Positions 25,212-64,000 of a stretch of DNA of 64,000 nt are shown here, piece by piece. Positions within the stretch are counted from its first letter, which is position 1, and the number at the start of each line of letters is the position of its first letter. This stretch comes from Dipteronia dyeriana (taxonomy: Eukaryota > Streptophyta > Magnoliopsida > Sapindales > Sapindaceae). The notes beneath the pieces are model-generated. The model did not search any database. It was not told where the DNA came from and saw nothing but the letters and a program-made list of their open reading frames with translations. The translations under genes were made by a program, and so were the position numbers. Location: contig CM065299.1 in NCBI GenBank assembly GCA_032871835.1, forward strand, positions 78,456,204 to 78,520,203. The letters run 5' to 3'.

Positions 25212-25224
25212 CTTGTTGAACCTG

Positions 25225-40435: not shown

Positions 40436-40483
40436 CACTATCTTTGGTACAAGGAATTCATTATACACACCGATCATGAGTCC

Positions 40484-42157
40484 TTGAAATATCTCAAAGG
40501 ACAAGGAAAGCTAATCCATAGGCATGCAAAATGGGTGGAGTTTATTGAATCCTTTCCATACATCATCAAGTACAAACAAGGTAAGGAGAATGTGGTTGCC
40601 GATGCTCTTTCTAGAAAGTATGCTCTAATTTCTAAACTTGATGCAAAATTATTGGGTTTTGAGTACATTAAAGACTTATACAATTCTGACTTTGATTTTG
40701 TTAATGTTTATGGGGCATGTGAGCAAAGGGGTTTTGACAAGTTCTTTAGGCATGATGGTTTTCTTTTCAAAGAAAACAAGTTGTGTGTTCCTAGATGTTC
40801 AATGAGAGAATTGCTTATGAGAAAGGCACATAGTGGCGGGTTAATGGGGCATTTTGGAGTTAAAAAGACTTTGGGTGTGTTAAGTGATCATTTCTTTTGG
40901 CCACACATGAAAAGAGACGTTGAGAGAATATGTGATAAATGCATTGCTTGCAAACGTGCTAAATCTAAAGTAATGCATCATGGGCTGTATACTCCTCTTC
41001 CTATACCTAGTGAGCCTTGGGTTGATATATCAATGGACTTTGTCTTGAGATTACCTAGGTCAAAATGAGGGAGAGATTCTAGTTTTGTTGTTGTTGACAG
41101 GTTCAGCAAGATGGCGCATTTCATTCCTTGCCGCAAAACAGATGATACAACATTTGTTGCGGGACTGTTCTTCGGAGAAATTGTGAGGTTACACGAAATT
41201 CCAAGGACAATTGTGAGTGATAGAGATGTGAAGTTCCTTAGCCACTTTTGGAAAACGCTTTGGAGAAAGTTGGGTACAAAGATGCTGTATTCAACCACTT
41301 GTCATCCACAAACAGATGTGGTAAACAGAACTTTATCAATGCTTTTGAGGGCCATAATTCAAAGGAATTTGAAGAAATGGGAGGAATGTTTACCACATGT
41401 GGAGTTTGCTTATAATCGAAGTGTGCATGCTATAACAAACCATTCACCATTTGAAGTTGTGTGCGGGTTCAATCCATTATCTCCTATGGATTTACTACCT
41501 TTGCCTTTGGAAAGAGCTAATTTGGATGGTAAGCAAAAAGCTGATTTTGTCAAAGCCTTGCACGAATATGTGCGCACTCAAATTGAAAAGAAAACTCTAC
41601 AATATGAGAAGCAACACAACAAGGGCCGAAAGCAAGTAGTATTTGAACCTAGTGATTGAGTTTGGGTACACTTGAGGAAGGAAAGATTTCCTAGCCAACG
41701 AAAGTCTAAACTCATGCCAAGAGGGGATGGACCATTTCGAGTCCTTCAAAGAATCAATGACAATGCATACAATCTGGAACTACCAAGTGAGTATGGCAAT
41801 GTTAGTGCAACTTTCAAAGTTTCTGATTTGTCTTTGTTTGATGTAGGTTACGAAGGTGCTGATTCGAGGATGAATCCTTTCGAGGAAAGAGGGAATGATG
41901 AGGACCAGCCAGTTGATCACAATTCAGCTAAGGTTGGAAAAGATCCAGATCCTTTGACCATTCATGGAGGACCAATGACAAGAGCTAAAGCTAAAAAGAT
42001 GAAAGAAGCCTTAACTTGTTTAATGGAAAGCATTTGGAAGGAGCAAGCTAGTCAAGATTTGGTCAAGGTTCTAAAGATGCAAGTAGAGTATAAAATGGTT
42101 AACATGTTTCAAACAAGTCCAAATCTCGAAGACAGGAGTCCAGCCTTATTAGAATGA
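40484..42157 (+). pseudogene. A2 RNase H end, integrase and LTR-crossing tail
   Basis: Contains [12 protein letters not shown], the zinc finger ([25 protein letters not shown]), the core from [12 protein letters not shown] with [14 protein letters not shown], and the C-terminal region. In the core, TTCHPQTD passes directly to VVNRTL: 12 bases encoding GKTE in A1 are deleted, removing the catalytic Glu. Stops lie at 41066 and 41657. The last frame (41672-42157) crosses the polypurine tract and runs about 260 bases into the 3' LTR. Confidence 0.9.
41880..41895 (+). promoter_or_regulatory. A2 polypurine tract
   Basis: CGAGGAAAGAGGGAA immediately before the 3' LTR, also coding for the pol end (FEERGN). 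It primes plus-strand DNA synthesis in LTR elements. Confidence 0.75.
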
Positions 42158-42874
42158 AGTATTCTAGCCTATCTTGAAGAATAAATGGCCATTCGGCCAT
42201 GTTGGGTTTAATTATGTTGGGTTTTGTGGGCTTATTTTCTGATTAGTTTGGGTTTTAATTGTGTTGGGTTTTGTGGGCTTATTTTATGAATAGTTTGGGT
42301 TTTTGTGTTGGGTTTTATTTTGTTAAGTGTGAGTTCATGTTTTCTTTTATTAGGAATAAGGAGTTACAAAGGCTGAATACTTTATGGCCATTATTCATGG
42401 TCTAAATGTCATTTAGTGGGAGGTTACACCTTTAATGGGCAGTTATATTTGTGTTGTATTGTCCTTGGCCTTTGTTCTATATAAACAAGACTGCTTTTTC
42501 CATGTAAGAGCAGAGATTTGAGTAATATAAACTTATTTGAGCACTTTGTGAGTGTTTTGTTTTTAAGTTCTTGCATGAACCTTGGAACTTATCAAGCTTA
42601 TTCAGCTTGTGGCGTTCAACAACCTCAAAATCTTTGTTTTGCCTTTAAACATATCAAACTTCATAGTTTGTGGCGTTTTGGGGAAATCAAAGTGTTGTTC
42701 TAATTAGCTTTTATCATTATTCTATTGATAAAGTGATTAGAATAGTTTTTCTTACTTCAATCTTGAACGATCGGGTTTGTTTCAATTAGTTGGAGGGTAT
42801 TAAATTGCATTCCATATGTATCATAGCTCTTTATATATTGGGGTGTATGGTTGCTAAGTTAATGATTTCCATCA
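41896..42874 (+). repeat. A2 3' LTR
   Basis: 979 bases, same length as the 5' LTR, with scattered substitutions (for example at 41936-41962 and 42427-42515). Borders the TTTGC duplication. Confidence 0.95.
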
Positions 42875-42879
42875 TTTGC

Positions 42880-42992
42880 TCCCATACTCATTTTATCAGC
42901 GACTTAAACTTGGTGAGTTAAGGTCGACTTCAACCACACTTTGTCATGCTGATAGGTCAATTAAAATACCAAAAGGAATAGTGGAAGATGTG
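42880..42992 (+). pseudogene. E2 protease, middle segment between A2 and E1
   Basis: Continues E2 protease after A2: encodes a YSFYQRLKLGEL-like segment and SIKIPKGIVEDV. It stops at GAAGATGTG, where E1 inserted, and resumes at 55387 with LVQVDKFICPVDFIVLE. Confidence 0.85.
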
Positions 42993-43256
42993 TGACACGT
43001 CGTAAAGAAGTGTTCCTACTCCCAAGTATAAGAGTGTCATAGTAATAAATTAATTGGTAAGACCGGGTCGAACCACAGGGAGGTTGTTCACTAGTCCTTT
43101 TAGAATTAATTATCTAGATTAATTACTAAGCTTGTTATAAAATGTAAATCAATTAAAATTAAAACTGAGGCGAAGGGATCCACTGTTGGTAATTCGAATA
43201 TGATCAAATTATTAATATTTAGTTCAGATTAATGGGAGGGTATTCCACTCCACTGA

Positions 43257-43650
43257 CTACTCTCTGATAGATGTGGGTAAAAGTACCAACTGTGCTAGAC
43301 AACATCTGATGCCTACATTGAGTCAAAACTCCACAAAGATCAGAGGGGATAAACCACTCTCTAATAGATATGGGTAAAAGTACTCATTGTGCTAGACAAT
43401 ATCTGTCTGTCTACAGTGAGTCAAAAACTCCACAAAGAGCAGAGGGAGAGAAACCACTCTCTGGTAAATATGGGTAAAAGTACTCATTGTGCTAGACAAT
43501 ATCTGTCTGTCTACAGTGAGTCAAAAACTCCACAAAGAGCAGAGGGGAGAAACCACTCTCTGATAAATATAGGTAAGAGTACTTATTGTGCTAGACAATA
43601 TTTGTCTGTCTACAGTGAGTCAAAAACTCCACAAAGATCAGAGGGGAGAA
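43257..43650. repeat. ~97-bp minisatellite in E1 left LTR, four units
   Basis: Each unit runs CTCTCTRRTARATRTGGGTAAAAGT ... GAGTCAAAAACTCCACAAAGA, in pieces of fewer than 20 conserved bases broken by variants. Four units are present here and three in the other LTR (53298-53600). Confidence 0.9.
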
Positions 43651-44242
43651 AGCAAAAAAAATAATAAACTTACCATAATTTAATCATATTTTCCATACCA
43701 ACAGTATCACCTTTGGCCCTAGCTATATAAAATTAGCCAAAACATAATTTAACTAGAAAATAACTACTTTATTTAAACTGCGAATTTGAGAACAAAAGAG
43801 AGAGAATTTCACAAATCTAATATCATATTTGGATTCAGAATATGGAAATTAAAGGGGAGAGGCCACCTATTTATACAAAATACGGATGAAAATTGACCAT
43901 CGAATGAATTTAGAATGGAGCGTCCAGATTTTGCTATGTCATCAGTGAATAATGAACAGTGACATTGTACAGTAAACGAATCCGTGAAAGTAAATAGTGA
44001 ACAGTAAACGCATCCGTGAAAGTGAATAGTAAACAATGCACCGGCTTCTAGAACATTATTCTCTATAGCACGTGTACGGTGCAATCATAATTTAGGTCAA
44101 TAGAAATGTGTCATATCATCTGTCAATAATCTTCTAGAAAGTCAACTATGAACAGTGCATCGACTTCTAGAATATGATTCTCTGCAGCTGCGTGTATGGT
44201 GCACTCACAATTTAGGACAATAGGAATGTGCCACATCATCAA

Positions 44243-44318
44243 GAACAGTGAAAGTCAACAGTGATCAGTGAAAGTCAACTGTGATCAGTGAAAGTCAACT
44301 GTGATCAGTGAATAGTCA
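44243..44318. repeat. ~20-bp tandem repeat in E1 LTR
   Basis: GTGATCAGTGAAAGTCAACT repeated about three and a half times. Shorter, more diverged arrays of the same words occur at 43915-44040 and, in the other LTR, at 53885-53950 and 54160-54225. Confidence 0.85.
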
Positions 44319-44584
44319 AAATTACAAAAATACCCTTCGTGGCCTTCCAAAGGTTTTTGACGTTCTAAACTTGAAAACGATATTTGTTTTGCTATCTGAC
44401 TTCTCTATAATTCTGAATTGATCGAATTACCTTTGAAATACAAGGAAAAATACACTGATTACTACACAACACATTTTTTTAAGCGAGCGAACGAAATTAT
44501 GTCTAAATTGGGGAATTAATCATATTGGAAGTGTAAAATGATGATATTATCCCTTAGTAAACATACACTTTCAGTGTTAATCAA

Positions 44585-44602: not shown

Positions 44603-45774
44603 AACCAGCTTATTGCTAATCCCTAGCAACTAAAGCGAAAATAGTAAAAACTCAAATTCAAATCTCTAAACTACCAAATAGACAAACTCTCTCATACCTC
44701 TTTTCTCACCCTTTGACAAACCAGTCATCAATTGAGTTATCAATCAAACTTTCTTGTGCTCAATAAAGATCAACACAATAACTATGAGATTCAATTGAAA
44801 TCAAGCAATATTTTCATTCCGAAATCTCATCAGGGCTTCTTTCTTAGGCAGTAGTTTTATTTTATTTTATTTTTTTGGTTTTTTTTAATATAACAAAATT
44901 GAAAACAAACATTTCATCTTTAATCCATGTAGCGAGCGTTAGGCCAATGACTCCCAAACCAGTTGACTTTAGAGCATCAAGTGTTAAAACACTCCTACGG
45001 GCTTAATTACTCGGATTGTAGATGTTTTTTTTTAGTACAATTCCCTTAAACTTTCTCTTCAACCCGTGTAACGAGCTTTGGGTCAATGACTCTCAAACCA
45101 GTTGGTCTTAGGGCATTAGGTGTTAAAACACCCCTCGGACTTAATTGCTCGAGTTAAAGAGGCTACGAAACTGCACTTTATTCTTATCCAAACTCCACCG
45201 TTTTATGTGAACACTCTATGCTTACCGAGGCATGAGGACCGACTAAATATAGCAAAATCTCAACTTACTGCACATAATCACGTGTCAATGTGCGTGTGTG
45301 TCTAGAAAAGTTCAAAAAATTTCTCAAGATGACTTAATGAACAAAAGGATTAGTCAATGATATCACAATAGAGAATTTATAAATTTGAAAAGTCATAAGA
45401 GAGGAAAAAAAATACATCAGAACTACAAAAGATGGGTCTCAGAAGTATCTAAAAGATCTTCTTACTCGGCCATCTTTACAAAAAAAATGGTCAGAAATTA
45501 GTTTTTTTTTTTAAAAACAAAAGTTATTGAATTAACTATCCCCTCCCCCCAACCAGAACAAGACATTGTCCTCAATGTCTTTAGAAAGAGTTAAGGTTTA
45601 TAAGATATCACCTGAACAACTTGAAAGACAACAAAATCCTGCAAAACAACAAAAGAAATACAAAATAAAGGAAAATAAAATGCAAAAAAAACATGGGACA
45701 ATCACAAACTAAGATTCAGATCAATTCTGTGTTTCTTGTTCTCTTCATCAATAGACCAATCAATTTTGGAGGTT
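44603..45774 (-). other. E1 3' non-coding region with duplicated ~95-bp block
   Basis: Non-coding sequence between LOG and the polypurine tract, conserved with 62598-63840 of E2. A block including CAAACCAGTTG, GTGTTAAAACAC and CTTAATT occurs twice (about 44930-45017 and 45062-45155). It also holds the palindrome at 45563-45578 and a C-rich run at 45541-45550. The open frames inside it are not conserved as protein. Confidence 0.7.
45563..45578. promoter_or_regulatory. Conserved palindrome in E1 3' region
   Basis: ACATTGTCCTCAATGT: six-base arms ACATTG/CAATGT around TCCT. The same element in E2 is at 62785-62800. It is followed, on the element strand, by CTTGTTCTGGTTGGG and a G-rich stretch. 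Confidence 0.7.
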
Positions 45775-46300
45775 GAAATATCTGGCTCATAATTGAAAGC
45801 TTGTAACTGGTCAATCAACTCATGAAGACTTGAAGCAGAGATAAAGATTTTTCAGATTGAATGTGGAATGTAATAATTTTTCAGAGCATGATCAAGAAAT
45901 GAAAGCAAACCATTATAAAATTTATTAACATTCAACAAACTGATGGGTTTCTCATGGATTTGTAGTTGCGCCCAGGATGCCATTGTAAAGATTTCTTCTA
46001 AGGTTCCAAAACCACCTGGCAAAGCTATAAACGCATCAGCATGATGTAACATAGCAGTCAATCTTTCAGCCAGACCTAAAACAACTACGTTTGTCTTTCC
46101 GATGATGTCTGCTGCGACCATAGGTTTTGGGACAATACCCAGAAATTGACTACCTCCATCTTGTGCAGCTCGTGAAACACAACCAATTAATCCCAAGTTA
46201 CCTCCTCCATACACTAGGTGTATTTTTCGCTTAGCCAAAACCTTACCAAAATGAGTTGCAGCCTCAACAAACTCTCTGTATTTATAGATCCTGAAAAGGT
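45775..46300 (-). pseudogene. LOG: E1 LOG-family cytokinin riboside monophosphate phosphoribohydrolase, truncated
   Basis: LOG enzymes release active cytokinin bases from their riboside 5'-monophosphates in plant cytosol and nucleus. This copy starts at KYREFVEAATHF, without the first ~22 codons of the E2 copy (ATG, start of the Rossmann fold). It keeps the glycine-rich HLVYGGGNLGLIG, then HADAFIALPGGFGTLEE (the family hallmark PGGxGTxxE), SWAQLQIHEKP and LLNVNKFYNGLLSFLDHA. A TGA replaces an Arg codon at 45852-45854; sequence homologous to the C-terminus continues to about 45775. A few codons after IIGKTN are also lost relative to E2. There are no introns, so it derives from a spliced mRNA. 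It lies between the third ORF and the 3' LTR, on the element's coding strand. Confidence 0.9.
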
Positions 46301-46511: not shown

Positions 46512-47060
46512 TTATGGGTCAGGGATATGCTTTCCATCCAATTTTCTTATAAATTGGCAAACAGTGTATTTTAAAGTCAGATTCCCAAGATTATATTGTG
46601 CATGTTCTTTTTGAAATTGTGGCCATAATCGGTCAATTTCCATTTGCACATATCCACTAGGATGTGCATCAAGAGTCGTTAGGTTATACAATGACTCCGT
46701 ATGCAAACCATGCCTAATGAATAAAATTTTATCTTTCCGATTATTAGACATCATTCCTAAAGAACGACAACGTGTGTTGCAAGTTTTACGTGCACATTTG
46801 TGACAAGTAACCCCTAACTTCTTAGCTCCTTATTTTTTTACAAGGTTACTTCTTCCAAAACAAGGCATGTAAGATATAAATGAATCAGCAGACTCAACTG
46901 CTAGACGTACCTTAGCTTCGATCAACCAGCGAATTTCAACAGGAATTTTGTTTATTATCAGTAAGCGTAATCTTTCGGAACGTGCTTCGTAAATTTTTTT
47001 CAGAGCATTTTGGGGCAACGATGGAAAATGTTTTCGCAGGTTTGTGAAAATTTCGTCCAT
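46512..47060 (-). pseudogene. E1 third ORF, unrecognised, Cys-rich centre
   Basis: 182 codons from MDEIFTNLRKHFPSLPQ to a stop after KLDGKHIPDP, with one internal TAA near 46830. The first part is basic and helical in character (KIYEARSERLRLLIINKIP, WLIEAKVRLAVESADSF). The centre has CHKCARKTCNTRC, a C-x2-C-x4-C-x3-C pattern that might bind zinc. The last part includes ILFIRHGLHTESLYNL and IDRLWPQFQKEHAQY. I do not recognise the family. No signal peptide or clear membrane segment is seen, so it does not resemble Athila env-like ORFs. E2 carries a homologue at 58951-59524. A short intron upstream suggests expression from spliced RNA. Confidence 0.7.
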
Positions 47061-51307: not shown

Positions 51308-52564
51308 CTAGTGTGTTTGTGGATGTGATGGACCTGGTGGTTGTGAAGACTGGGCTTGATTGTTGTTCCTCAAATTAAAGTTTGGATGATTTCTCCAATC
51401 AAGATTGTAGGTTTGTGAATATGGGTTGGAATTTGGCTTGTTGAAAGCGTGCAAAGCATTGGCTTGTTCATGAAGGCAGTCTTTTAAAGCTGGTAAAGTT
51501 GGGCAACTATGAGTGATATGATCATCAAAATCACATACATGGCATGCAATTTCTTGTACAAATTTTACTTGTTCACTCTTTTTAGTTCCTAAAGCTTCAA
51601 CTTTCCTACCTAGGGATACGAATCTAGCTTGAAGGTCATGATCTTCCTTAAGATTGTAAATGCCTCCACTAGATGGAGATGGTTGTGGTTTGCTCATGGA
51701 CTCATAGGAACCAATGGTGTCCCAATTTTGAGCACTATTGGCAATATGGTCAAAGTATTCAAGTGCTTCTTCAGGATTTTTGTCACTGAACTCCCCATTA
51801 CACACCATTTCCATGACTTGTCTACTTTGGGGTGTGAGTCCCTCATAGAAATGTGACACTATCCTCCATGTTTCAAAACCGTGATATGGACAGACATTTA
51901 ACAACTCTTTGAACCTATCCCAACATTGGTAAAGTGTTTCCCCAGGTTTTTGGGCAAATGAAGTGATTTGCCGCTTAAGAGAGTTTGTTCTATGAGGTGG
52001 AAAAAAATTCTTTAAGAACTGTTGTTGCATGTCATTCCAAGTTTGGATTGATCCTGACCTAAGATTTTGTAACCAAGTTTTAACTTTTTCTTTTAAGGAA
52101 AAAGGGAAAAACTTAAGCCTGATTATACCCATGCTAACATTTTGGTCAGTACAAGTGTTACAGACTTCCTCAAACTCCCTAAGATGCAAATATGGGTTTT
52201 CAGATTCAAGACCGTGAAAATTGGGTAAAAGCTGAATGATTCCCGGTTTAAAATTAAAGTGTCTTGCATTTGGTGGGAAAGCTATACATGAAGGTGCTCC
52301 AGTATCTGTGGGGTTCATGTAGTCTCTAAGAGTTCTAGGTGGATTTAGGTTAATGTGTTGGTCATGGTTAACATAAGGTGGATGGTTGTTGTGTTGAGAT
52401 ATGTTGTCAAGGTTGTCTAAAAGGTTCTCGACTTGGTTTCCTGCTGGATGTCTAAGTGGGTTTTCAGCCATGTTGTTGGTGAATTCAGCCATGTTGTTGG
52501 TGAATGTGGGTGATTGTGATTTTCTAATTAATCTACCACTAGATGTTTGAGACCAATGTCTCAT
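51308..52564 (-). CDS. E1 gag polyprotein
   Basis: Open for 418 codons. An Asn-rich N-terminus with a repeated AEFTNNMAE block precedes RTLRDYMNPTDTGAPSCI, FKPGIIQLLPNFHGLESENP and HLREFEEVCNT. The gag core follows (IRLKFFPFSLKEKVKTWLQN, WNDMQQQFLKNFFPPHRT, KPGETLYQCWDRFKELL, HGFETWRIVSHFYEGL), then the knuckle CHVCDFDDHITHSC (CX2CX4HX4C; ~338-351) and an Asn/Gln-rich tail. This is a typical Athila-type gag. It would form the virus-like particle and bind element RNA. A stop at 51308 separates it from the linker. Confidence 0.9.
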   Translation of the reverse strand: MRHWSQTSSGRLIRKSQSPTFTNNMAEFTNNMAENPLRHPAGNQVENLLDNLDNISQHNNHPPYVNHDQHINLNPPRTLRDYMNPTDTGAPSCIAFPPNARHFNFKPGIIQLLPNFHGLESENPYLHLREFEEVCNTCTDQNVSMGIIRLKFFPFSLKEKVKTWLQNLRSGSIQTWNDMQQQFLKNFFPPHRTNSLKRQITSFAQKPGETLYQCWDRFKELLNVCPYHGFETWRIVSHFYEGLTPQSRQVMEMVCNGEFSDKNPEEALEYFDHIANSAQNWDTIGSYESMSKPQPSPSSGGIYNLKEDHDLQARFVSLGRKVEALGTKKSEQVKFVQEIACHVCDFDDHITHSCPTLPALKDCLHEQANALHAFNKPNSNPYSQTYNLDWRNHPNFNLRNNNQAQSSQPPGPSHPQTH

Positions 52565-53014: not shown

Positions 53015-53032
53015 TCTCCGGCAACGGCGCCA
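53015..53032 (-). promoter_or_regulatory. E1 primer-binding site
   Basis: The minus strand reads TGGCGCCGTTGCCGGAGA, the conserved Athila-type primer site. It starts six bases from the LTR edge. Confidence 0.9.
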
Positions 53033-53038
53033 AAAACC

Positions 53039-55381
53039 TGACACGTCTTAAAGGAGTGTTCCTACTCTCAAGTATAAGAGTGTCATAGTAATAAATTAAC
53101 CGGTAAGACCGGGTTGAACCACAAGGAGATTGTTCACTAGTCCTTGTAGAATTAATTATCTAGATTAATTACTAAGCTTGTTATAAAATGTAAATCAATT
53201 AAACTTAAAACTGGGGCTAAGAGATCCACTGTTGGTAATTCAAATATGATCAAATTATTAATATTTAGTCCAGATTAATGGGAGGGTATTCCACTCCACT
53301 GAACACTCTCTGATAGATGTGGGTAAAAGTACCCACTGTGCTAAACAACATCTGTCTGTCTACAGTGAGTCAAAACTACACAAAGATCAGAGGAGATAAA
53401 CCACTCTCTAATAGATATGGGTAAAAGTACTCACTATGCTAGACAATATCTGTCTGTCTACAGTGAGTCAAAAACTCCACAAAGATCAAGGGGGAGAAAC
53501 AACTCTTTGATAAATATAGGTAAAAGTACTCATTGTGCTAGACAATATTTGTCTGTCTACAGTGAGTCAAAAACTCCACAAAGATCAGAGAGGAGAAAGT
53601 AAAAAAATAATAAACTTACCATAATTGGATCATATTTTCCATACCAACAGTATCACCTTTGGCCCCAGCTATATAAAATTAGCCAGACATAATTTAACTA
53701 GAAAATAACTATTTTATTTAAACTGAGAATTTGAGAACAAAAGAGAAAGAATTTCACAAATCTAATATCAGATTTGGATTCAGAATATGGAATTTAAGGG
53801 GGAGAGGCCCTATTTATACAAAATACGGATGAAAATTGACCATCGGATGAATTTAGAATGGAGCCTCCAGATTTCACCACATCATCAGTGAATAGTGAAC
53901 AGTGAACAGTAAACGCATCCGTGAAGTGAATAGTGAATAGTGAACAGTGCACCGGCTTCTAGAATATTATTCTCTGCAGCACGTGTACGGTGCACTCACA
54001 ATTTAGGCCAATAGAAATGTGCCACATCATCGGTCAATAATATTCTAGAAAGTCAACTATGAACAATGCACCAACTTCTAGAATGTGATTCTTTGCAGCC
54101 ACGTGTACGGTGCACTCGCAGTTTGGGCCAATAGGAGTGTGCCACGTTATCAGGAATAGTGAAAATCAATTGTGAACAGTGAAAGTCAACTATGATCAGT
54201 GAAAGTCAACTATGATCAGTGAATAGTCAAAATAACAAAAATGCCCTTCGTGGTCTTCCTAAGGTTTTTGACGTTCTAAACTTAAAAACGATGTTTGTTT
54301 TGCTATCTAACTTCTCCATAATTCTGAATTGATCCAATTATCTCTGAAATACAAGGAAAAATACTATGGGTGGGCACCAACCCGACTAGGTTGGGTTGGG
54401 TTGCTCTTAAGATTGGGTTGGGTTGGGTTGGGTTAATAAAATATAACCCAACCCAACCCGACAACCCGATAAAATTAATAAAAAAAATTAAATAATTTTA
54501 TTTACTATTAGATTTATTATGAAATCTCAAATTTTTAAAAATATTAAAAATTTACTCATACACCATTTATAATATTTTAAATGGCAAATAAAAGTACATA
54601 ATTTTAAATATTGTATACCGTAATATATAATACATTTATTAAAAATATACGATTATATTAATATATTATCTTCATATTTTGTATTAAATGGCACATCCTG
54701 GATTATACTTTAAAATACTATTTTTTCCTTAGGATTTGATTAATAACTTAGTAGAAAAAGTCTAATAATTGTATATAAACTCAAACTATTATGTTTGTTG
54801 AAATAAATAATAGATTATCCAACAATGGGATATTTAACGAAGTGATTATAATTGTAAAATGGATGGGAGACTTAGATGGAGACTTTCCAAGTTGGATAAA
54901 TTGCTATATTTTAATTTTTTAATTATGTAAGAGATATTTAAACAATTTGTATTATATGTTATGATTTTATTTTGATACTTTTAAGTAATCTAAACTCAAC
55001 GTGATATGATATTATGGTGAAAAATTATTTTAAATTTGAATTTTGATATAACAAAATTTGAATTTAAATATATTTTTTCTATTGGGCTTAAAAAGCCCAA
55101 CCCGATCAACCCAACCCAACCCGACCCGACAAATATTAGGTTGGGTTGGGTTGGGTTAAAATTTACGTTGGGTTGGATTGGGTTGAAAAATTTTCAACCC
55201 AACCCAACCCAACCCAACCCAACCCGAAAACGCCCACCCCTAAAAAATACATTGATTACTACACAACACATTTATTTAAGCGAGCGAACGAAATTATGTC
55301 TAAATTGGGGAATTAATCATATTGGAAGTGTAAAATGATGATATTATCCCTTAGTAAACATACACTTTTCAGTGTTAATGA
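53039..55381 (-). repeat. E1 right (5') LTR with hAT-like insertion
   Basis: Homologous to the left LTR throughout, with three rather than four ~97-base units (53298-53600) and an 878-base insertion at 54365. The right terminus reads TTAATGA instead of TTAATCA, a change in the last bases of the LTR, directly before the ATGTG duplication. Confidence 0.92.
54365..55242. mobile_element. hAT-like non-autonomous DNA element (MITE)
   Basis: The ends TATGGGTGGGC and GCCCACCCCTA form short terminal inverted repeats of the TAGGGGTGGGC type. It is flanked by the identical eight bases AAAAATAC (54357-54364 and 55243-55250), and the other E1 LTR has the empty site. Both subterminal regions hold arrays of GGGTT/AACCC. 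The 600-base middle is AT-rich and shows no transposase, so it would depend on a host hAT transposase. Confidence 0.9.
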
Positions 55382-55386
55382 ATGTG

Positions 55387-56078
55387 TTAGTACAGGTCGA
55401 TAAATTTATATGCCCAGTAGATTTTATTGTTTTGGAAACACAACATGTTGTTAATGAGTACAAATCAATTCCTGTTATATTGGGTTTTCCATTTTTAGCT
55501 ATTGCAAATGCCTTGATTGATTGCAGGAATGGAATAATGAACATGTCTTTTGAAAATATGGAAATTAAGCTTAATGTTTTCAACATGTCTAAGGAACCAT
55601 TTGAAGATGAAAATGAAGATGCGGATATTATTGAAACCATTGTTAAAGATCATGTTCAAAAGGATTATTTTAACTCATCTGAAGTTTGTTTGATCAATGC
55701 ACCTAAGTCATGCACGCATTCACATCTTGATAATTGTTTGCAGGTTGCCGAAGAAGAAGGAGACACTTCAGATTTTGAAGAATTGGAACAGAAAGATGAC
55801 GAGCCAGAAGAAAAAGCACCACAACTGGATTTAAAGCCCTTACCAGAAGGACTCAAATATGCGTACCTTGGAGACGAGCAGATTTACCCAGTGGTAATCT
55901 CTTCTAACCTCATAGAAGAGCAAGAAGGTAAGTTGCTACATGTTTTAAAGAAAAATAAGAATGCAATTGATTGGACTTTGAAAGATTTGAAATGTATTAA
56001 CCCATTGATTTGTTCACATCGAATAAATTTAGAGGAAAATGCTAAAACATATTGACAACCCCAAAGAAGACAAAACCC
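55387..56078 (+). pseudogene. E2 protease end and linker
   Basis: Resumes E2 after E1: LVQVDKFICPVDFIVLE, IPVILGFPFLAIANALIDC (GRPF changed to GFPF), then an acidic linker (FEELEQKDDEPEEKAPQLD), EGLKYAYLGDEQIYPVVIS and the RT lead-in (NAIDWTLKDLKCINPLICSH). It is open to 56055, ending in a stop at AKTY. Confidence 0.85.
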
Positions 56079-56079
56079 A

Positions 56080-57362
56080 CACATGAAAAAAGTTGTCAAG
56101 ACCGAAGTCCTTAAATTACATGACGTGGAAATTAACTACCCTATCTCTGATAGTAAATGGGTGAGTCGTACATAAGTTGTGTCAAAAAAATTTGGAATCA
56201 CTGTTGTTAAAAATGAAAATGGTGAGTTAATTCCAACTCGTGTTCCATCTAGTTGGCACATGTACATTGATTATAGAAAATTAAAAGATGCCACTAGAAA
56301 AGATCATTTTCCCCTTCCATTCCTTGACCAGGTTTTAGAAAGAGTAGCAGGTCATCCCTACTACTACTTTCTTGATGGGTGTTCTGGATACTATCAAATT
56401 CTCATTGCATTAGAAGACCGAGAAAATACCACATTCACATGTCCTTTTGGAACCTTTGCATTTAGAAGAATGCCATTTGATTTGTGTAATGCTCCAACCA
56501 CATTTCAACGATGCATGCTAAGCAAATTTAATGACGTGATTGAACATTGTTTAGATGTCTTTATGGATGATTTAACTGTGTTTGGGAATTCTTTTGATGA
56601 ATGTCTGAATAACTTGGAAAGAGTCTTGAAACTTTGCATAGAAAAATGATTTGTGCTTAACTGAAAAATGTGTCATTATATGATCACATCTGGAATTGTT
56701 TTGGGTCATGTTGTGTCATCTAAAGGAATCAAGGTTGACAAGGTAAAAATTGAAGTCATTTCGAAGTTACCACCACCACAAACAGTCAAAGATGTGTGGT
56801 CATTTTTAAGGCATGCAAGATTTTATAGAAGGTTTATTAAAGATTTCAGTGTCATATCTAAACCACTTTGTAACCTCTTATTAAAAGATGCAAAGTTCGA
56901 ATGGACACAAGAGTGTAAAGAGACCTTTAAAAAGATAATTGACCTTTTAATATCTGCTCCTATCATACGATCCCCTAATTGGTCCTTGCCTTTTGAATTG
57001 ATGTGTGATGCGAGTGATTTTGCTGTTGGAACTGTCTTAGGACAGAAAAGAGAAGGTAAGCCTTTTATGATTTATTACACAAGTAAAACTTTGAATTGTG
57101 CACAAATAAATTACACCACCACTAAGAAAGAATTACTCGCTATGATATTTGCATTGGATAAATTTCGGTCATACTTGATTGGCGCTTCAACCATTGTTTT
57201 TACTGATCACCCAGCTTTGAAGTATTTAATGTCTAAACAGATGCAAAACCAAGATTGATTCGCTAGATTTTGTTGCTACAAGAATTCAATCTCACAATCA
57301 AGGACAAAAAGGGTGCTGAAAATATCGTTGCAGACCATTTATCAGATTTGATAAAGCACCCA
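56080..57362 (+). pseudogene. E2 reverse transcriptase and RNase H
   Basis: RT from MKKVVKTEVLKLHD, with a stop near 56173, then NENGELIPTRVPSSW, IDYRKLKDATRKDHFPLP, FLDGCSGYYQILIALED and the catalytic VFMDDLTVFGNSFDEC. A stop at 56647 is followed by the thumb (GHVVSSKGIKVDKVKIE) and RNase H (ELMCDASDFAVGTVLGQ, YTTTKKELLAMIFALDKF, IVFTDHPALKYL). A frameshift occurs at 57258, then a readable AENIVADHLSDLIKHP. Core motifs remain recognisable. Confidence 0.88.
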
Positions 57363-58735
57363 TGAATGATTCTTTTCCTGATGATCTTTTATTCTCTGTC
57401 ACAACTTTGCCTTGGTATGCTGACATGGTTAATTATCTCACAACAGGAATGATGCCACTCGATTGGAATGCACATGACAAAAAGAAATTTTTGACTGAGG
57501 TAAAACGTTTTTACTGGGATGACCCGTACTTATTCAAGTATTGTCCTGATCAAATTGTTCGACGGTGTATTCCAGGCAATGAGGTAAGTAGTGTCATTGA
57601 ATTTTGTCATTCTGAAGCATGTGGTGGTCATTTTTCGTCAAAGAAAACGACTGTAAAAATCTTACAGTGTGGATTTTATTGGCCCACCATGTTTAAAGAC
57701 GCACATACATTCTGTAAAACCTGTGAAATTTGTCAAAAGTTAGGATCCATTTCCAAGTGAAATATGATGCCTTTAAACCTCATTCTTGTCATTGAAATAT
57801 TTGATTGTTGAGGAATTGATTTTATAGGTCCATTTCCACCGTCATTTGGATTTTTGTACATTTTGGTTGCCATTGATTATGTGTCAAAATGGGTTAAGGC
57901 AATTCCTTGTTGAAATAATGATCACAAAACAATGATTAAGATTTTAAAGGAAAATCTTTTGAGTTGATTTGGAATCCCTCAAGTCATTATCAATGATGGA
58001 GACAAACACTTTTGTAACAAACCTTTTGAGTCTTTAATGAAGTAATATGAAGTCACACACAAAATTGCCACACCATACCACCCTCAAACAAGTGGTCAAG
58101 TTGAGTTAGCAAATAGGGAGATAAAACATATCTTGTAAAAAATGGTTAACCCTGATCGAAAAGATTGGTCTCTTAGACTAAATGATGCACTTTAGGCTTA
58201 CCGCACTACATTCAAAACATCTTTGGGTATGTCTCCCTATCATTTGGTTTATGGAAAACCTTACCACTTACCTGTTGAACTTGAGAAAAAAGCATATTGG
58301 GTCATTAAAGCTTTCAATTCTAACCTAAATGATGTTGGTGAATTGCGCAAGTTGTAAATAAATGAACTTGAAGAATTAAGAAACGATGCATATGAAAATA
58401 CAAAAATTCTTAAAGAAAAGTCTAAAACCTTTCATGACAGACAAATTTTAAGAAGATCATTTGAAGTTGGTCAAAAGGTTTTGCTTTATAATTCTCGACT
58501 TCATTTATTTCCTGGCAAATTGAAATCAAAATGGAGTGGTCCATTTGTTATGAAACACGTGTATCTGCTTGTTGTGAAACACGTGTATCCATATGGTGCC
58601 CTTGACATTGAGAATCCAAGTAATAGTAATGTGTTTAAAGTAAATGGACAACGTGTGAAACCATTCTTAGAAAAAACAGATGTTCAAAAAGACTATGCCG
58701 TCCTTTCTGACCCTTGTTACAAAGGTGAGTAAACA
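57362..58735 (+). pseudogene. E2 integrase
   Basis: The zinc finger (CHSEACGGHFSSKKT, CKTCEICQKLG) is in the open frame 57362-57760. The core, broken by stops, has [22 protein letters not shown] and [19 protein letters not shown], then SPYHLVYGKPYHLPVELE and the C-terminal SRLHLFPGKLKSKWSGPF. A 27-base local duplication repeats KHVY (58543-58600). It ends DPCYKGE, with the splice donor AAAG|GTGAGT at 58725 overlapping the stop. Confidence 0.87.
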
Positions 58736-58950
58736 AATCTTTTGCTTTTGACTTTATTTGTGTTTGCAATTATTTTTTTGTTTTTGTTCGCTTTTACGTT
58801 TTGAATTTTGAAGGATTAATTTCTAGGTTCAATTTTTGCTAGGTGTGTTTTGCTATATAACCCCGGTTAAGTGGCGAATAACAGTACTCCGTGACAATTA
58901 AAGTCGGTTTAATTCAGTTTCCTAAATAACTGATCCCCAAAACAAGGCAT

Positions 58951-59524
58951 TGACGAAATTTTCACAAACCTGTAAAAACATTTTCCATCGTTTCCCCAAA
59001 ATGTTATGAAAAAGATTTACAAAGCACGTTCCGAAAGATTACGCTTACTGATGATAAACAACATTCCTGTTGAAATTTGCTGGTTGATCAAAGCTAAGGT
59101 ACGTCTAGCAGGTGAGTCTGCTGATTCATTTATATATTACAAGCTTGGTTTTGGAAGAAGTAACCTCGCAAGAAAACAAGAAGTAACCTCGCAAGAAAAC
59201 AAAGAGCTAAGAAGTTAGGCATTACTTGTCACAAATGTGCACGTACAACTTGCAACACACGTTGTCGTTCTTTAGGAATGGTGTCTAATAATCGAGAATA
59301 TAAAATTTTATTAATTAGGCATGGTTTGCGTAGGGAGTCATTGGATAATATCCTAACGACTCTTGATGCACATCTTAGTGAATATGTGCAAATGGCAATT
59401 GACCGATTATGACCACAATTTCAAAAAGAACATGCACAATATAGTCTTGGGAATCTAATTTTAAAAAACCCTGTTTGTCAATTTATAAGAAAATTGGATG
59501 GGATGCATATCCCCGACCCATAGA
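58951..59524 (+). pseudogene. E2 third ORF, unrecognised
   Basis: Homologue of the E1 third ORF. The start codon is changed (ATTGAC where E1 has ATGGAC). Readable parts are KIYKARSERLRLLMINNIP, then a 23-base tandem duplication near 59157-59202 that shifts the frame. Next come AKKLGITCHKCARTTCNTRC with the same C-x2-C-x4-C-x3-C spacing, and the end RKLDGMHIPDP with a stop at the same place as in E1. Conservation of the Cys pattern and of the stop in both copies supports a real ancestral gene. Function unknown. Confidence 0.65.
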
Positions 59525-59827
59525 GGGTGTTGAAGTCGTTTCTGGACTTAAAACCAGAGGAAGATGTGAGCCACAATCACAACTACCAGTAAATATCATT
59601 TTTTTTATTATCTTTTTTCTTCCGCATTTAATGTTTTTTGTAATTATTGTTGTTACTTTTGATTTTTGAACCATTTGGATCTAATATCATTGACAAATAC
59701 GTCGCCCTATACATATAGGTGTATCATTATGTTATCTTTGCGGGATCTAAAAATACAAGCATTTGTTTTCCTTTTTTGCTTCAAAGCACCCATAAACATT
59801 CAAAAGAAAAATTCATAGAGTGCATTA
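59525..59827 (+). other. E2 spacer before LOG
   Basis: Contains the candidate donor CCA|GTAAAT near 59589 and a decayed acceptor near 59744, then about 80 bases that look like a LOG 5' untranslated region. No gene. Confidence 0.5.
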
Positions 59828-60409
59828 ATGGCATCACCTTTAACTAAACGATTCACAAACATTTGTGTGTTTGGTGGCACTAATTATGGGAAATACAGAG
59901 AGTTTGTTGAGGCTGCAACTCATCTTGGTAAAGTTTTGGTTGATCGAAAAATACACCTAGTGTATGGAGGAGGTAACTTGGGATTAATGGGGCGTGTTTC
60001 ACGAGCTACACGAGACGGAGGTAGTCAAGTTCTGGGGATTGTCCCAAAACCTATGGCCGCAACAGACATCATCGGAAAGACAAACGACGAAGAGCTAGTT
60101 TTTTCAGGTATGCCTGAAAGATTGACTGCTAAGTTACATCATGCTGATGCATTTATAGCTTTGCCAGGTGGTTTTGGAACCTTAGAAGAAATCTTTACAA
60201 TGGCATCCTAGGCGCAACTACACATCCATGAGAAACCCATCGGTTTGTTGAATGTTAATAAATTTTATGATGGTTTGCTTTCATTTCTTGATCATGCTCT
60301 GAAGAATTATTACATTCCACCTTCAATCCGAAAAATCTTTATCTCTACTTCAAGTCCTCATAAGCTGATTGACCAGTTACAAGCTTTTAATTATGAGTCA
60401 GATCCCTGA
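59828..60409 (+). pseudogene. LOG: E2 LOG-family cytokinin riboside monophosphate phosphoribohydrolase
   Basis: 193 codons plus stop, within the usual length of LOG proteins, with one premature TAG at codon 128. The E1 copy has Trp there. It begins MASPLTKRFTNICVFGGTN; the first Rossmann strand and glycine loop are residues 11-21, YGGGNLGLMG 46-55, HADAFIALPGGFGTLEE 105-121 with the family motif PGGxGTxxE at 113-121, and LLNVNKFYDGLLSFLDHA after the stop. LOG enzymes cut ribose 5'-phosphate from cytokinin ribotides to give active cytokinin. The gene lacks introns, is on the element's coding strand, and lies between the third ORF and the 3' LTR. Without the stop it would be a full-length LOG. 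Confidence 0.92.
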
Positions 60410-60426
60410 ACCTCCAAAATAGATTG

Positions 60427-62597
60427 TGAAATTTCCCTTTATCTTTACAGTGTAAATATACCTAGAGGGGGTGAATAGGTATATACTCCAATTTTTGTCT
60501 TCTTTTAAAACAATGCACTTTTAACAATGCCTAATGAAAATTGCAAACAATGACACACAATATTTACGTGGTAAACCTCCGAAGAGGAAACATCCACGGG
60601 TTGATACCACAACCACCGGCAAAAGCAAATCCACTATTTCAAAAGAGTTACACACTCAAGCAATCACACATGCTCTCCAAGCTATCACTCTCATTCTATC
60701 CTTCAACCTAGTGATCTACTAAGCCTACTTCGTATCCAATACCTCTTGTCTCTAGGAAGATTCCTTGCTCACATATCCGGATCCTCCCGACCCTAGGTAA
60801 GACTTCTTGCTCAACTATCTGAGTCCTCCCGACTCTAGTCAAGACTTCATCGCTCAACAATCCGAGGTCACACACCTCTTGTCGAGACTTCCACTTGCTT
60901 AGCTATCCAAGTCCTTCCGACTCTAGCTAAGACTTCCAATTGCTCAAATCAAAGAATCACTCTAAGATATGAGACTTTCTACCTCTTCACAAGGCATCTA
61001 AGTGATCATGAATGCAAAACGCAAACAAGCACTCAACATAGAAAATGATGATCAACAAATTCTATGGACATGCAACTAGATAGCTAGATTATGCTTTCAA
61101 AGAACAATCACCAATGTATCTAGGTAACCTAAGCATGTTATCAACTGAGAACCAAATCAATGAAATGAATATACCAATTGATGTAGACCTAGTTCTTAGA
61201 AAATGAAATTAAATCTAGAAATAGTCAATCAAGCATAAGAACAAAAGATTTCTAGAAACAATTTCATGTTTATCAAGTTTAGCACAAATCAATCAACTTA
61301 TCACAAATCTAGCTAAACTTGAAACTTCAAATCAACAAACCACAAAATGATATCAAAATCATCCTAGTCATGCATCTTAATCAAATAGCATCAATCAATA
61401 AGAGGATCTAAGAAGAAAACTAAGAAGAAGATGATTTTACCAACAAGAATGAAAACCACGAACTGAAGATCTGATCACAGACAAAACTCTAGACATCATT
61501 TGGTTTTGGAAATGCTTGGGGTTTTTAGAAATCTTCAAGACACTTGAAATCGGTTTTTGAATCAAGTGATTCGGAGTTAAAATAAAAAAGTTATCACAAA
61601 AACAAAAATCAAAATGTTGAAAGAAAAATTCTGCACTTGTTCTTCAAATTTTTTTTTTCTCAACTTGTCTTGAATAAGAGAGAATGAGAGGTTTTAAAGA
61701 GAGAACAACCAAAAGACCAAAAAGCCTTCATGGTTTAGTGCCTCCCCAAGATGGCGCGTGGGCATCTCAAGGCAAAGCAACTTTGGGGCCGAGATGGCCA
61801 CGCGCCATCTCGGGATGGTGCCAAGTGATGGCTTATGCCATCGCACCTCTTCCCTTGCGCTCCTTTCGTGTTTTTCAACTGTTCTTTGGCCTCTAAACTC
61901 CAAATTTGAATCCATTTAAATATTACGAACCAGAACTCCCTCACGGACATGGAAATATAAGATACCCAACCCAGAAAATAAGAATTTGACTCAATATATG
62001 AAGACGAAAACAATGTATGCAACATGAGTTGAAAGTGTAGTATCTTTTGACTTAGAACTTGAAATCAATAGTTTGAGTAACAGAAATGATCGAAACTCAA
62101 TCAAGAATGATTTAAGACTGAAATCAAGTTCAATATCCATGTTATACAAACATATACATATACAAACACAATTCACACTAGAATGTAAACTACATAGAGA
62201 TAGTCTCCAATCATGCATTTTCCAAAACATGTTATTTCCATACCAATGCATGAGCATTCATTTTCAAGTGTGTGAATGTGTTATACATGGTGCACAATGA
62301 TGCAGGGACACATATGAATGAATTATATATGTGTGCCTATAATGGTGCACAACGATGTAGGGACACATATGTATGAATTATGTGTGTGTGTGCCTTACGC
62401 CTTGCAAGAAGAAGAAGAATCTCGATACCTTAGCATCCAAGAATAGTACCAATCCTCTTGAAGACGAACTTTGCATCATGAGAAGTTGTTGTTCTTCCTT
62501 GAAGCTCTTATCATCATGAACCACTTAAGCAACTAAGCATTACAAAGAAATAAAGTTTTGTTATGGAATCAAGCCAACACAAATCTAAAAATTAACA
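60427..62597 (-). mobile_element. S1: 2.2-kb solo LTR inserted in E2
   Basis: Absent from the corresponding place in E1. The ends are TGAAATTTCCC and AAATTAACA, flanked by GATTG (60422-60426) and TATTG (62598-62602), a probable five-base duplication with one change. CTAGAGGGGGTGAATAGG lies near the left end; its complement is common near the U5 end of plant copia LTRs, so minus orientation is inferred. A ~53-base block with GGTGCACAAYGATG is duplicated near 62286-62400. Open frames inside are not recognised. Confidence 0.65.
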
Positions 62598-63852
62598 TAT
62601 TGGTCCATTGATGAAGAGAACAAGAAACGCAGAATTGATCTAAATCTCAGTTTGTAATTGTCGCATGGTTTTTATGCATTTTATTTTCCTTTATTTTGTA
62701 TTTCTTTTGTATTTCTTTTGTTGTTTTGCTGGATTTTGTTATCTTTCAAGTTCTTCATGTGATATCTTTTAAACCTTAACTCAGACATTGGGGACAATGT
62801 CTTGTTCTGGTTGGGAGGAGGGGATAGTTGATTCAATAACTTTTGTTTTTAAAAAAACTAACTTCTGACCATTTTTTTTTTGTAAAGATGACTGAGTAAG
62901 GAGATCTTTTAGATACTTCTAATATGCATCTTTATAGTTCTGATGCATTTTTTTTCCTCTCTTCTGACTATTCAAATTTATAAACTCTCCATTGTGATAT
63001 CATTGATTAATCCTTTTGTTCATTAAGTAATCTTGAGAAATATTTTGAACTATTTTGGACACACACGCATATTAACACGTGATTATGTGCAGTAAGTTGA
63101 GATTTTGTGATATTTAGTTCTAAAACATAATTCAAGGGTAACAACCGAATGCAGTGGTCTTGTTAAAAAATATATATAGTAATGTTTTTTGATCAAAACT
63201 CTTATTTAGTAGTCGGGCCTCATGCCTCAGTAAGCATAGAGTGATTGCGTAAAATGGTGGAGTCTGGATAAGAATAAAGTGCAGTTTCGTAGCCTCTTTA
63301 ACTCGAGTAATTAAGTCCGAGGCATGCTTAAACACCTAATGCCTTAAGACCAACTGGTTTGGGAGTCATTGACCCAAAGCTCGTTACACGGGTTAAAGAG
63401 AAAGCTTAAGGGAATTGAACTAAAAATAACATCTACAATTTGAGTAATTAAGCCCGTAGGAGTGTTTTAACACTTAATGCCCTAAAGCCAACTGGTTTGG
63501 GAGCCATTGGCCTAAAGCTCGCTACATGGATTAAAGATGGAATGTTTGTATTCAATTTTGTTATATTTTCTAGTTAAAAATAAAATAGAAGAAGAAAATA
63601 AAACTACTGCCTACGGAAGAAACCTTGATGAGATTTCAGAATGAAAATGTTGCTCGATTTCAATTGAATCTCATAGTTATTGTGTTGATCTTTATTGAGC
63701 ACAAGAAAGTTTGATTAATGACTGATTGACAAAGGGTGAGAAAAGAGGTCTGGGAGAGTTTGTTTATCTGGTAGTTTTTTTAGATTTGAATTTGAGTTTT
63801 TACTATTTTCGCTTTAGTTGCTAGGGACTAGCAATAAGCTGGTTGTGGGGTG
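62598..63852 (+). other. E2 3' non-coding region and polypurine tract
   Basis: Homologous in reverse to E1 44584-45760. It holds the palindrome ACATTGGGGACAATGT (62785-62800), a G-rich stretch (62809-62823), two copies of the ~95-base block (about 63298-63395 and 63430-63530) and the polypurine tract GGTTGTGGGGTG (63841-63852). No gene. Confidence 0.75.
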
Positions 63853-63972
63853 TGATTAACACTGAAAAGTGTATGTTTATTAAGGGATAATACCATCATT
63901 TTACACTTCCAACATGATTAATTTCCCAATTTAGATATATTTTCGTTTGCTCATTTAAATAAATGTGTTGTC
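63853..63972 (+). repeat. E2 3' LTR, start only
   Basis: Begins TGATTAACACTGAAAAGTG like the E1 LTRs in the same orientation. Homology stops at ATGTGTTGT (63972); the last 28 bases of the window (CAAGTCCTAGGAAGG...) do not match the E1 LTRs. The LTR is therefore interrupted or truncated there, or another element begins. Confidence 0.8.
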
Positions 63973-64000
63973 AAGTCCTAGGAAGGCCATGACGGGCATT

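What the first reader, a model, noticed from the sequence alone, without database searches (positions are those of the whole stretch)
59828..60409. Cytokinin-activating LOG gene carried as cargo by an Athila-like retrotransposon
A full-length, intronless LOG-family gene (PGGxGTxxE, YGGGNLGLMG, 193 codons) lies between pol and the 3' LTR on the coding strand of E2. The same gene at the same place occurs in E1. Plant retroelements sometimes capture gene fragments, but a nearly intact hormone-activation enzyme kept through transposition would be unusual. It could let an element alter cytokinin in the cells where it is active. Seen: sequence and position. Known: the LOG family reaction. Inferred: benefit to the element.
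Basis: partly seen in the sequence, partly recalled or inferred. Interest (0 to 1): 0.88.

Follow-up and report, generated by a model that had tools for sequence, protein, structure and literature searches.

The report
Retrotransposon family carrying cytokinin-activating LOG gene
A multi-copy plant retrotransposon family carries, after its own replication genes, a zinc-finger gene faintly resembling one of carlaviruses and a gene like those that activate the plant hormone cytokinin; both copies in this window are broken, but some other copies keep the hormone gene open.

Summary
Partly right. A LOG homologue (PF03641) lies between pol and the 3' LTR in both elements, but neither copy is intact: E2 has an in-frame TAG at codon 128 and its tail is cut off by a 2.2-kb insertion; E1 lacks its ATG and has another stop. 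Between E1 and E2 it diverges neutrally (dN/dS 0.89).

It is still an element component. The genome (probably Dipteronia dyeriana) gives at least 150 LOG matches. Of 35 fetched with flanks, all 32 informative ones keep the order integrase, zinc-finger ORF, LOG, tail; a same-family LTR follows in 39 of 41 copies; 11 of 41 keep a 217-codon LOG.

LOG in Gypsy elements is already in print. Not found in print: its partner, an ORF resembling carlavirus nucleic-acid-binding protein (PF01623, near cut-off), also beside LOG in Citrus, Orobanche and Primulina models; and a C-terminal LxLxL tail. Element-type LOGs form one clade over rosids and asterids, with long-term constraint (dN/dS about 0.2 against one plant contig) but none visible within this genome, where some stops are shared by copies. 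Most likely an old accessory module; function untested.

The parts
59828..60406 (+). LOG (cytokinin riboside 5'-monophosphate phosphoribohydrolase-like) pseudogene of E2, residues 1-193; in-frame TAG at 60209-60211
60427..62598 (.). insertion in E2 that separates LOG from its C-terminal tail (absent at the homologous place of E1)
62601..62654 (+). displaced C-terminal tail of the E2 LOG (WSIDEENKKRRIDLNLSL)
58976..59466 (+). E2 remnant of a zinc-finger ORF resembling carlavirus nucleic-acid-binding protein, broken into open pieces
   Evidence: pieces 53-65% identical to Citrus proteins that also hold LOG, best E 6e-27 and 2e-25; place from L052; PF01623 above cut-off in the open copy L045, below it in the window pieces
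57362..57757 (+). E2 integrase zinc-binding (H2C2) part of pol
   Evidence: PF17921 E=2e-14
56179..56649 (+). E2 reverse transcriptase part of pol
   Evidence: PF00078 E=6.7e-16
55382..63978 (+). element E2, 5'-truncated in pol; 3' LTR begins about 63979 and lies almost wholly outside the window (L063 183-1264)
45701..46283 (-). LOG pseudogene of E1: ATG and about 60 bp of coding sequence missing, 9-bp deletion, one nonsense codon, tail RIDLNLSL present
46548..47057 (-). E1 remnant of the zinc-finger ORF (two open pieces; approximate ends)
   Evidence: 56-61% identity to Citrus proteins, best E 6e-28 and 3e-34
51308..52564 (-). E1 gag ORF
   Evidence: PF03732 E=3.6e-20
53018..53032 (-). E1 primer binding site TGGCGCCGTTGCCGG, 6 bases inside the 5' LTR border (tRNA-Asp type; that assignment is recalled)
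53039..54366 (-). E1 5' LTR
   Evidence: direct repeat with 42993-44453, K2P 0.084
42993..44453 (-). E1 3' LTR
   Evidence: used as LTR query

Best explanation
A multi-copy, Athila-like Ty3/gypsy LTR retrotransposon family carries a 3' accessory module between pol and the 3' LTR: (1) an ORF of about 183 codons for a basic zinc-finger protein resembling carlavirus nucleic-acid-binding proteins, and (2) an intronless 217-codon LOG with a C-terminal basic/LxLxL tail. The LOG most likely came once from a spliced plant LOG mRNA and was then inherited with elements across eudicots, kept open by selection on transposing lineages, while dead copies such as E1 and E2 decay neutrally after insertion. 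Proposed action: in cells where the element is transcribed, the LOG makes active cytokinin directly from nucleotide precursors (or acts by other means where the last Glu of its motif is lost, as in Citrus), and the zinc-finger protein binds nucleic acid; together they may favour element expression or spread in dividing, germline-forming cells. Shown: the module, its order, copy number, clade, and codon-level constraint between two LOG lineages. Inferred: mRNA capture, expression, enzyme activity, benefit to the element.
For: Order integrase-zinc finger-LOG-tail on one strand in 32 of 32 loci with three or more parts, of 35 long loci. Same-family LTR 0.6-1.5 kb downstream of LOG in 39 of 41 copies, E1 being the source of the query. 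150 scored genomic LOG matches of 671 candidates. A 217-aa LOG ORF ending in DLNLSL in 11 of 41 copies, 10 of the 11 with PGGxGTxxE. Elsewhere, of 83 long LOG-matching proteins 13 have PF03641 together with gag, RT, RNase H or integrase domains (7 Citrus sinensis, 1 Citrus x changshan-huyou, 4 Primulina eburnea, 1 P. tabacum) and 10 have PF01623 listed beside LOG (7 Citrus, 2 Orobanche, 1 Primulina) (my count of its table). Two Acer saccharum models join this gag type to LOG (59-65% identity to E1 gag). Element-type LOGs: one clade of 46 of 63 rows (99/95), apart from LOG1/3/8-type rows (99/94) and four bacterial rows. Constraint: dN/dS 0.18-0.23 for 11 open copies against L001; pN/pS 0.38 in frame, 0.95 and 1.37 out of frame. 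LxLxL in the last 20 residues of 85 of 121 element-type rows and 0 of 120 LOG1/3-type rows.
Against: Within this genome no selection is visible: pooled pN/pS 0.66 for LOG, 0.78 for the zinc-finger ORF, 0.68 for integrase, against 0.50-0.78 in shifted frames and spacer. Ten LOG stop positions recur in two to four of 41 copies, as if broken LOGs had been copied (or the sites mutate often). L001 is a contaminant contig with no match to the element proteins outside LOG, so its constraint may have acted on host genes. The zinc-finger ORF's match to viral NABP is weak: PF01623 21.8 against cut-off 20.9 in L045; of the ten proteins with PF01623, all rescanned, five reach the cut-off and five do not; of three window pieces one matches below it. 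In Citrus the last Glu of PGGxGTxxE is lost in 11 of 12 rows looked at, the twelfth being unresolved. Six full-length Xanthoceras rows and three metagenome rows lack LxLxL. Gene models join neighbours: some Citrus models join LOG to LRR, BED/hAT, MULE or other unrelated domains. The 41 copies come from the best-scoring 150, so integrity is over-estimated. Host LOG genes with introns were not located. No expression data.
Confidence: 0.55

Rival explanations
1. Passenger: the element captured LOG and the zinc-finger sequence, and they spread only because the master copies carried them; open frames in some copies reflect youth, not function.
For: Neutral divergence of E1 and E2; no selection beyond controls within the genome, integrase behaving the same; 30 of 41 copies lack the complete 217-codon frame; ten stop positions shared by two to four copies.
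Against: Open 212-217 codon LOGs in distant plants of one clade, with active-site positions nearly invariant in the 121-row alignment; in-frame constraint against L001 at dS 1.4-1.6, with no stop in frame and 11-19 in each other frame of both sequences; zinc-finger ORF and LOG together in Sapindales and Lamiales models.
Confidence: 0.3
2. The clade is a host family of intronless LOG genes (annotated LOGL10 in Populus) from which different elements picked up LOG several times.
For: L001 holds an intact intronless LOG without recognisable element genes on 4.1 kb; for the Populus, Parasponia, Xanthoceras and metagenome rows I saw no flanking DNA.
Against: Element-joined models occur on several branches of the clade (Acer, Citrus, Primulina, window); some rows stand for large clusters (39, 35, 79, 205 member sequences, assemblies pooled); Gypsy consensus sequences with LOG are in print for Citrus and Populus (PMC9289625).
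Confidence: 0.15

Closest known systems
LOG-like ORFs in Ty3/gypsy (Athila-like) elements: Steinbauerova et al. 2011 Genetica 139:1543 (not held; seen only as cited; its abstract, as I recall it, names two Athila-like elements similar to LOGL4); PMC9289625 (passages and section 12 read: YgdH domain in Gypsy consensus of Citrus sinensis, C. clementina and Populus trichocarpa)
   Same: LOG domain as an extra domain or ORF in plant Gypsy elements, Citrus and Populus included
   Different: Section 12 mentions no carlavirus-like ORF beside LOG (it reports another zinc-finger domain, AIR1, in Gypsy elements of other species), no LxLxL tail, no single clade over rosids and asterids and no motif loss in Citrus; Dipteronia, Acer, Orobanche and Primulina are not named there for LOG
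Plant LOG phosphoribohydrolases (At2g37210/2a33 = AtLOG3, At5g11950/1ydh = AtLOG8; LOG numbers recalled)
   Same: PF03641 and TIGR00730, YGGGxxGLMG, PGGxGTxxE, Arg98 and Glu121 kept in the sampled copies
   Different: top 150 genome matches are 41-49% identical to Dipteronia sinensis LOG3; separate clade; intronless; basic plus LxLxL tail in 85 of 121 rows
Carlavirus nucleic-acid-binding (cysteine-rich) proteins, PF01623/PF05515; cysteine-rich proteins of mandariviruses are pathogenicity determinants, one a silencing suppressor (PMC12172455, abstract read; that they are related to the carlavirus family is recalled)
   Same: basic stretch followed by a Cys-rich finger; PF01623 above cut-off in Orobanche P0254/P0262, Primulina P0302, Citrus P0249/P0260 and Dipteronia L045, PF05515 above cut-off in the two Orobanche proteins
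   Different: weak, partial match (about 25-90 residues); finger spacing CX2CX4CX3-4C; encoded in an LTR element; function untested

Membership tests
LOG (TIGR00730 / PF03641) proteins | family profile above curated cut-off | tested here: met
   L045 LOG: PF03641 125.2 bits (cut-off 27), TIGR00730 153.9 bits (cut-off 96.35); window E2 with X 117.8 bits
LOG (TIGR00730 / PF03641) proteins | PGGxGTxxE with its last Glu, and Arg98 | tested here: met
   41 of 41 sampled copies keep R98 and E121 (sample biased to high scores); not met in Citrus: 11 of 12 rows looked at lack the last Glu
LOG (TIGR00730 / PF03641) proteins | cytokinin riboside 5'-monophosphate phosphoribohydrolase activity | not testable with these tools
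   needs enzyme assay; the prokaryote equivalog NF058542 (cut-off 300) was not met (104.3 bits)
LTR retrotransposon, Ty3/gypsy | two LTRs, PBS, gag, RT, integrase in gypsy order | tested here: met
   E1: LTRs, PBS, gag; pol by DNA homology with E2, whose RT and integrase parts have Pfam hits
Athila lineage | place in RT/RH/INT phylogeny, absence of a second RNase H, PBS type | tested here: inconclusive
   PBS of tRNA-Asp type (assignment recalled); no lineage tree was built; PF03078 did not appear among the Pfam hits of the few pieces scanned
Carlavirus NABP (PF01623) | profile above curated cut-off | tested here: inconclusive
   met in L045 (21.8 against 20.9), P0249, P0254, P0260, P0262, P0302; not met in P0246, P0255, P0266, P0277, P0314 nor in the window pieces taken singly
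Carlavirus NABP (PF01623) | nucleic-acid binding or silencing suppression | not testable with these tools
   no assay; the AlphaFold model of the finger part of P0254 was uninformative (pLDDT mostly under 50)
EAR-motif proteins | LxLxL sequence that binds TOPLESS (recalled) | tested here: inconclusive
   sequence present in 85 of 121 rows; binding not testable here

The most novel reading that the evidence does not exclude
An Athila-like retroelement lineage has carried, since before the split of rosids and asterids, a plant-virus-like host-manipulation module: a carlavirus-type zinc-finger (possibly silencing-suppressing) protein and a cytokinin-activating LOG with an EAR-like tail, one acting on RNA silencing and one on cell proliferation or transcription. 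In Citrus the LOG has lost the last Glu of its motif yet is kept in a large cluster, which would mean a non-enzymatic role.
Probability: 0.25. Interest if true: 0.85.

Novelty: new variant of a known kind. Interest (0 to 1): 0.6.

Why it matters
If the module works, a transposable element manipulates a plant hormone, and perhaps RNA silencing, much as a virus does, for its own transmission. It may also explain part of the 'LOG' and 'LOGL10' genes listed in plant genomes: some are element genes and should not be counted in the plant's cytokinin pathway. The pairing with a virus-like zinc-finger protein gives a concrete, testable hypothesis for the extra ORFs of Athila-type elements, whose functions are an open question.

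Tried and rejected
Rejected: 'full-length intact LOG in the window' (stops and deletions). 'Only two copies'. 'LOG inserted independently of the element' (same order and LTR distance in other copies). Bacterial origin: the LOG groups with plant LOGs apart from four bacterial rows, and 16 of the 17 loci, all but the plant-like L001, match at 34-41%.

Led nowhere: viral-contig scans with LOG and the zinc-finger alignment gave no confirmed locus. The structure model of P0254 was poor. Solved-structure search with the zinc-finger alignment gave one chance-level hit (E 0.94). Host LOG3 as query returned 150 scored matches of 786 candidates, all 41-49% identical, so no host exon was seen; the follow-up with its last part did not complete, nor the genome count of the zinc-finger ORF. 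Parsimony counts by codon position (third-to-first/second ratio on inner branches LOG 1.32, integrase 1.00, zinc finger 0.71, spacer 1.77) were uninformative. One search used wrong columns for strand and is superseded; one of the 12 ORFs listed (L044) is not LOG and is not among the 11. Steinbauerova et al. 2011 is not held. Passages of PMC7264820 and PMC6317226 named no LOG.

Full report
What is in the window. At 59828 on the plus strand, downstream of integrase, there is a sequence encoding a LOG-type protein (PF03641, E=4.7e-34 with the stop as X; best solved relative At2g37210, E=5.3e-51). It is not: an in-frame TAG at codon 128 leaves 127 codons, the TGA at 60407 is a second nonsense codon, and the C-terminus lies 2.2 kb further on, displaced by an insertion at 60427-62598. 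The copy in E1, on the minus strand, has a deletion of about 140 bp that takes the ATG and about 60 coding bases, a 9-bp deletion and another nonsense codon. E1 and E2 share no LOG stop, so their common source probably had an open LOG (inference). Across the 41 copies studied, however, ten stop positions recur in two to four copies, E2's two among them: either broken LOGs were copied, or those sites mutate often.

Neutral decay of these two copies. K2P distance between E1 and E2 is 0.078 in LOG, 0.078-0.090 in pol, 0.084 in the spacer, 0.084-0.097 in the 3' non-coding region, and 0.084 between E1's own LTRs. LOG dN/dS between them is 0.89-0.95.

The element. E1 has a gag ORF (PF03732), pol homology, two LTRs and a PBS; E2 is 5'-truncated in pol and has its 3' LTR just past the window end. 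The window lies in a 914-Mb assembly whose contig lengths (82,658,277, 116,943,948 and 115,342,490) are close to those of Dipteronia dyeriana records (82,664,400, 116,951,285 and 115,350,299). I take it as that species or one very near it (Sapindaceae). The Dipteronia dyeriana proteins are then paralogous copies, not cross-species evidence.

Copy number and architecture. A six-frame search found 671 first-look candidates and scored 150; all 150 are over the PF03641 cut-off (a lower bound). With five further short loci (rows 2, 4, 6, 8, 10) and E1 this gives 41 copies; E2 is among them as L052. In the 35 long loci, integrase was found in 25, the two zinc-finger parts in 31 and 33, LOG in 35 and the tail in 33; the order was kept in 32 of 32 loci with three or more parts. 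An LTR of the same family follows LOG on the same strand in 39 of 41, E1 itself being the source of the query; the two without are L025, a short locus, and L052, where the LTR lies beyond the fetched piece. A complete 217-codon LOG is open in 11 of 41, and 10 of these 11 have PGGxGTxxE; 18 of 41 have no in-frame stop in the aligned codons; R98 and E121 are kept in 41 of 41. The sample comes from the best 150 and is biased towards good copies. All this makes LOG a component of the element.

A second accessory ORF. Between pol and LOG lies an ORF, 183 codons in L045 and L047, for a basic zinc-finger protein with CHKCARTTCNTRC or the like. In E1 and E2 it is broken; searched piece by piece, the pieces match Citrus proteins at 53-65% identity (best E 3e-34). 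Pfam's carlavirus nucleic-acid-binding family (PF01623, cut-off 20.9) is reached by L045 (21.8), Citrus P0249 and P0260, Primulina P0302 and Orobanche P0254 and P0262, the last two also reaching PF05515; it is not reached by Citrus P0246, P0255, P0266, P0277 and P0314 or by the single window pieces. In Orobanche (P0254, P0262) and Citrus (P0249, P0255, P0260) gene models the finger and LOG form one predicted protein. The viral resemblance is weak but repeated; a structure model did not help.

Other plants. Searching LOG among longer proteins gave 83 hits. By my count of its table, 13 have PF03641 together with gag, RT, RNase H or integrase domains: 7 from Citrus sinensis, 1 from Citrus x changshan-huyou, 4 from Primulina eburnea, 1 from P. 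tabacum; three more Citrus models have such domains and a LOG match without PF03641. Ten carry PF01623. Two Acer saccharum models join the same gag type to LOG (59-65% identity to E1 gag). Gene models can join neighbours by error, and some Citrus models join LOG to LRR, BED/hAT or MULE domains; but the element neighbours recur in three genera (Citrus, Primulina, Acer) and in the order seen here at DNA level.

One old clade. In a tree of 63 chosen LOG domains, the 46 element-type rows (window, Dipteronia, Acer, Xanthoceras, Citrus, Populus, Parasponia, Orobanche, Primulina, metagenome rows, L001) form one clade (99/95), apart from 13 rows of LOG1/3/8 type (99/94) and four bacterial rows. Xanthoceras and Acer fall together on the first branch, weakly (82/36). 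Other host LOG subfamilies were not sampled as such. Rosids and asterids are both inside (lineages), which suggests capture before their split, or horizontal movement.

Selection in the long run. L001, a 4.1-kb plant-like contig inside a Mycobacterium assembly, has an intact intronless LOG ending in KLDLDLHL. Eleven open Dipteronia copies against it give dN/dS 0.18-0.23 at dS 1.4-1.6; pN/pS for L045 is 0.38 in frame and 0.95 and 1.37 in the other frames. So the lineage has been constrained, although L001 is not shown to sit in an element. Within this genome there is no signal: pN/pS is LOG 0.66, finger 0.78, integrase 0.68, against 0.50-0.78 in shifted frames and spacer. Integrase, needed for transposition, looks the same, so the comparison has little power after a burst.

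The tail and Citrus. LxLxL within the last 20 residues occurs in 85 of 121 element-type rows and in 0 of 120 LOG1/3-type rows. Several of the other 36 rows are truncated, but six full-length Xanthoceras rows (ending KKRRLA or KKRKLA) and three metagenome rows (ending RRRLD) lack it; the two of the latter that are in the tree group with Acer. It resembles an EAR motif, which recruits TOPLESS (recalled). In Citrus the motif reads DLATLEA, DLATFEA or DLTTLEA with the last Glu lost in 11 of 12 rows looked at, the twelfth (P0265) being unresolved; one such row, P0084, stands for 79 member sequences. A role other than catalysis is therefore possible there.

How it may work. Most likely the element carries LOG as an accessory gene. 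Where the element is transcribed, LOG would release active cytokinin and so favour division of the cells in which new copies are made, while the zinc-finger protein binds nucleic acid, perhaps against silencing, as one mandarivirus cysteine-rich protein does (PMC12172455, abstract). TATAAATA lies within 160 bp upstream of LOG in 32 of 41 copies, and TTTTCAG (a possible splice acceptor) in 19 of 41; how LOG is expressed is unknown. Everything after 'the module exists and its LOG lineage was constrained' is inference.

What is known. LOG in Gypsy elements is in print: PMC9289625 (section 12 read) reports it for two Citrus species and Populus and cites Steinbauerova et al. 2011, whose abstract, as I recall it, names two Athila-like elements with LOGL4 similarity (paper not held). 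I found no paper tying a carlavirus-like domain to LTR elements in the searches (listings only; of 309 papers, 20 were listed). The novelty is therefore a new variant of a known kind: the two-gene module, the tail, the single deep clade and the Citrus loss of the motif's last residue.

Noticed in passing
58976-59466 (+) and about 46548-47057 (-): Zinc-finger ORF resembling carlavirus NABP between pol and LOG; its two parts are found in 31 and 33 of 35 long loci of this genome, and it sits next to LOG in Citrus, Orobanche and Primulina gene models.
   Followed up: yes
54368-55242: AT-rich insertion with ends ATGGGTGGGCACC...CGCCCACCCCTA and GGGTTGGGTT repeats at the outer edge of the E1 5' LTR; looks like a non-autonomous DNA transposon.
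   Followed up: no
55243-55382 with 44446-44584 and 63855-63971: The same ~120-bp element tail occurs next to the outer side of the E1 5' LTR, inside E1 before the 3' LTR, and inverted at the end of E2; suggests that E1 and E2 belong to a rearranged (inverted or tandem) pair rather than two clean insertions.
   Followed up: partly
23436-29317 and 37033-42878: A second repeated element pair, 93% identical and inverted, with ~980-bp LTR-like ends; one copy sits inside an older Athila-like fragment (34643-35842 and 42874-42993).
   Followed up: no
L001 1-4148: A contig filed under Mycobacterium sp. 852014-52450_SCH5900713 looks like plant DNA (intronless plant-type LOG, possible LTR/PBS sequence downstream): probable contamination of a public genome.
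   Followed up: partly
57809 (+) and its E1 counterpart: A stop after FDC in the integrase is seen in both E1 and E2 translations, whereas E1 and E2 share no LOG stop; the source may already have had a broken integrase, or the site was hit twice.
   Followed up: no
LOG codons 8, 40, 48, 59, 62, 128, 130, 158, 194, 200: LOG stop positions seen in two to four of 41 copies: copied broken LOGs or mutable sites, not told apart.
   Followed up: no
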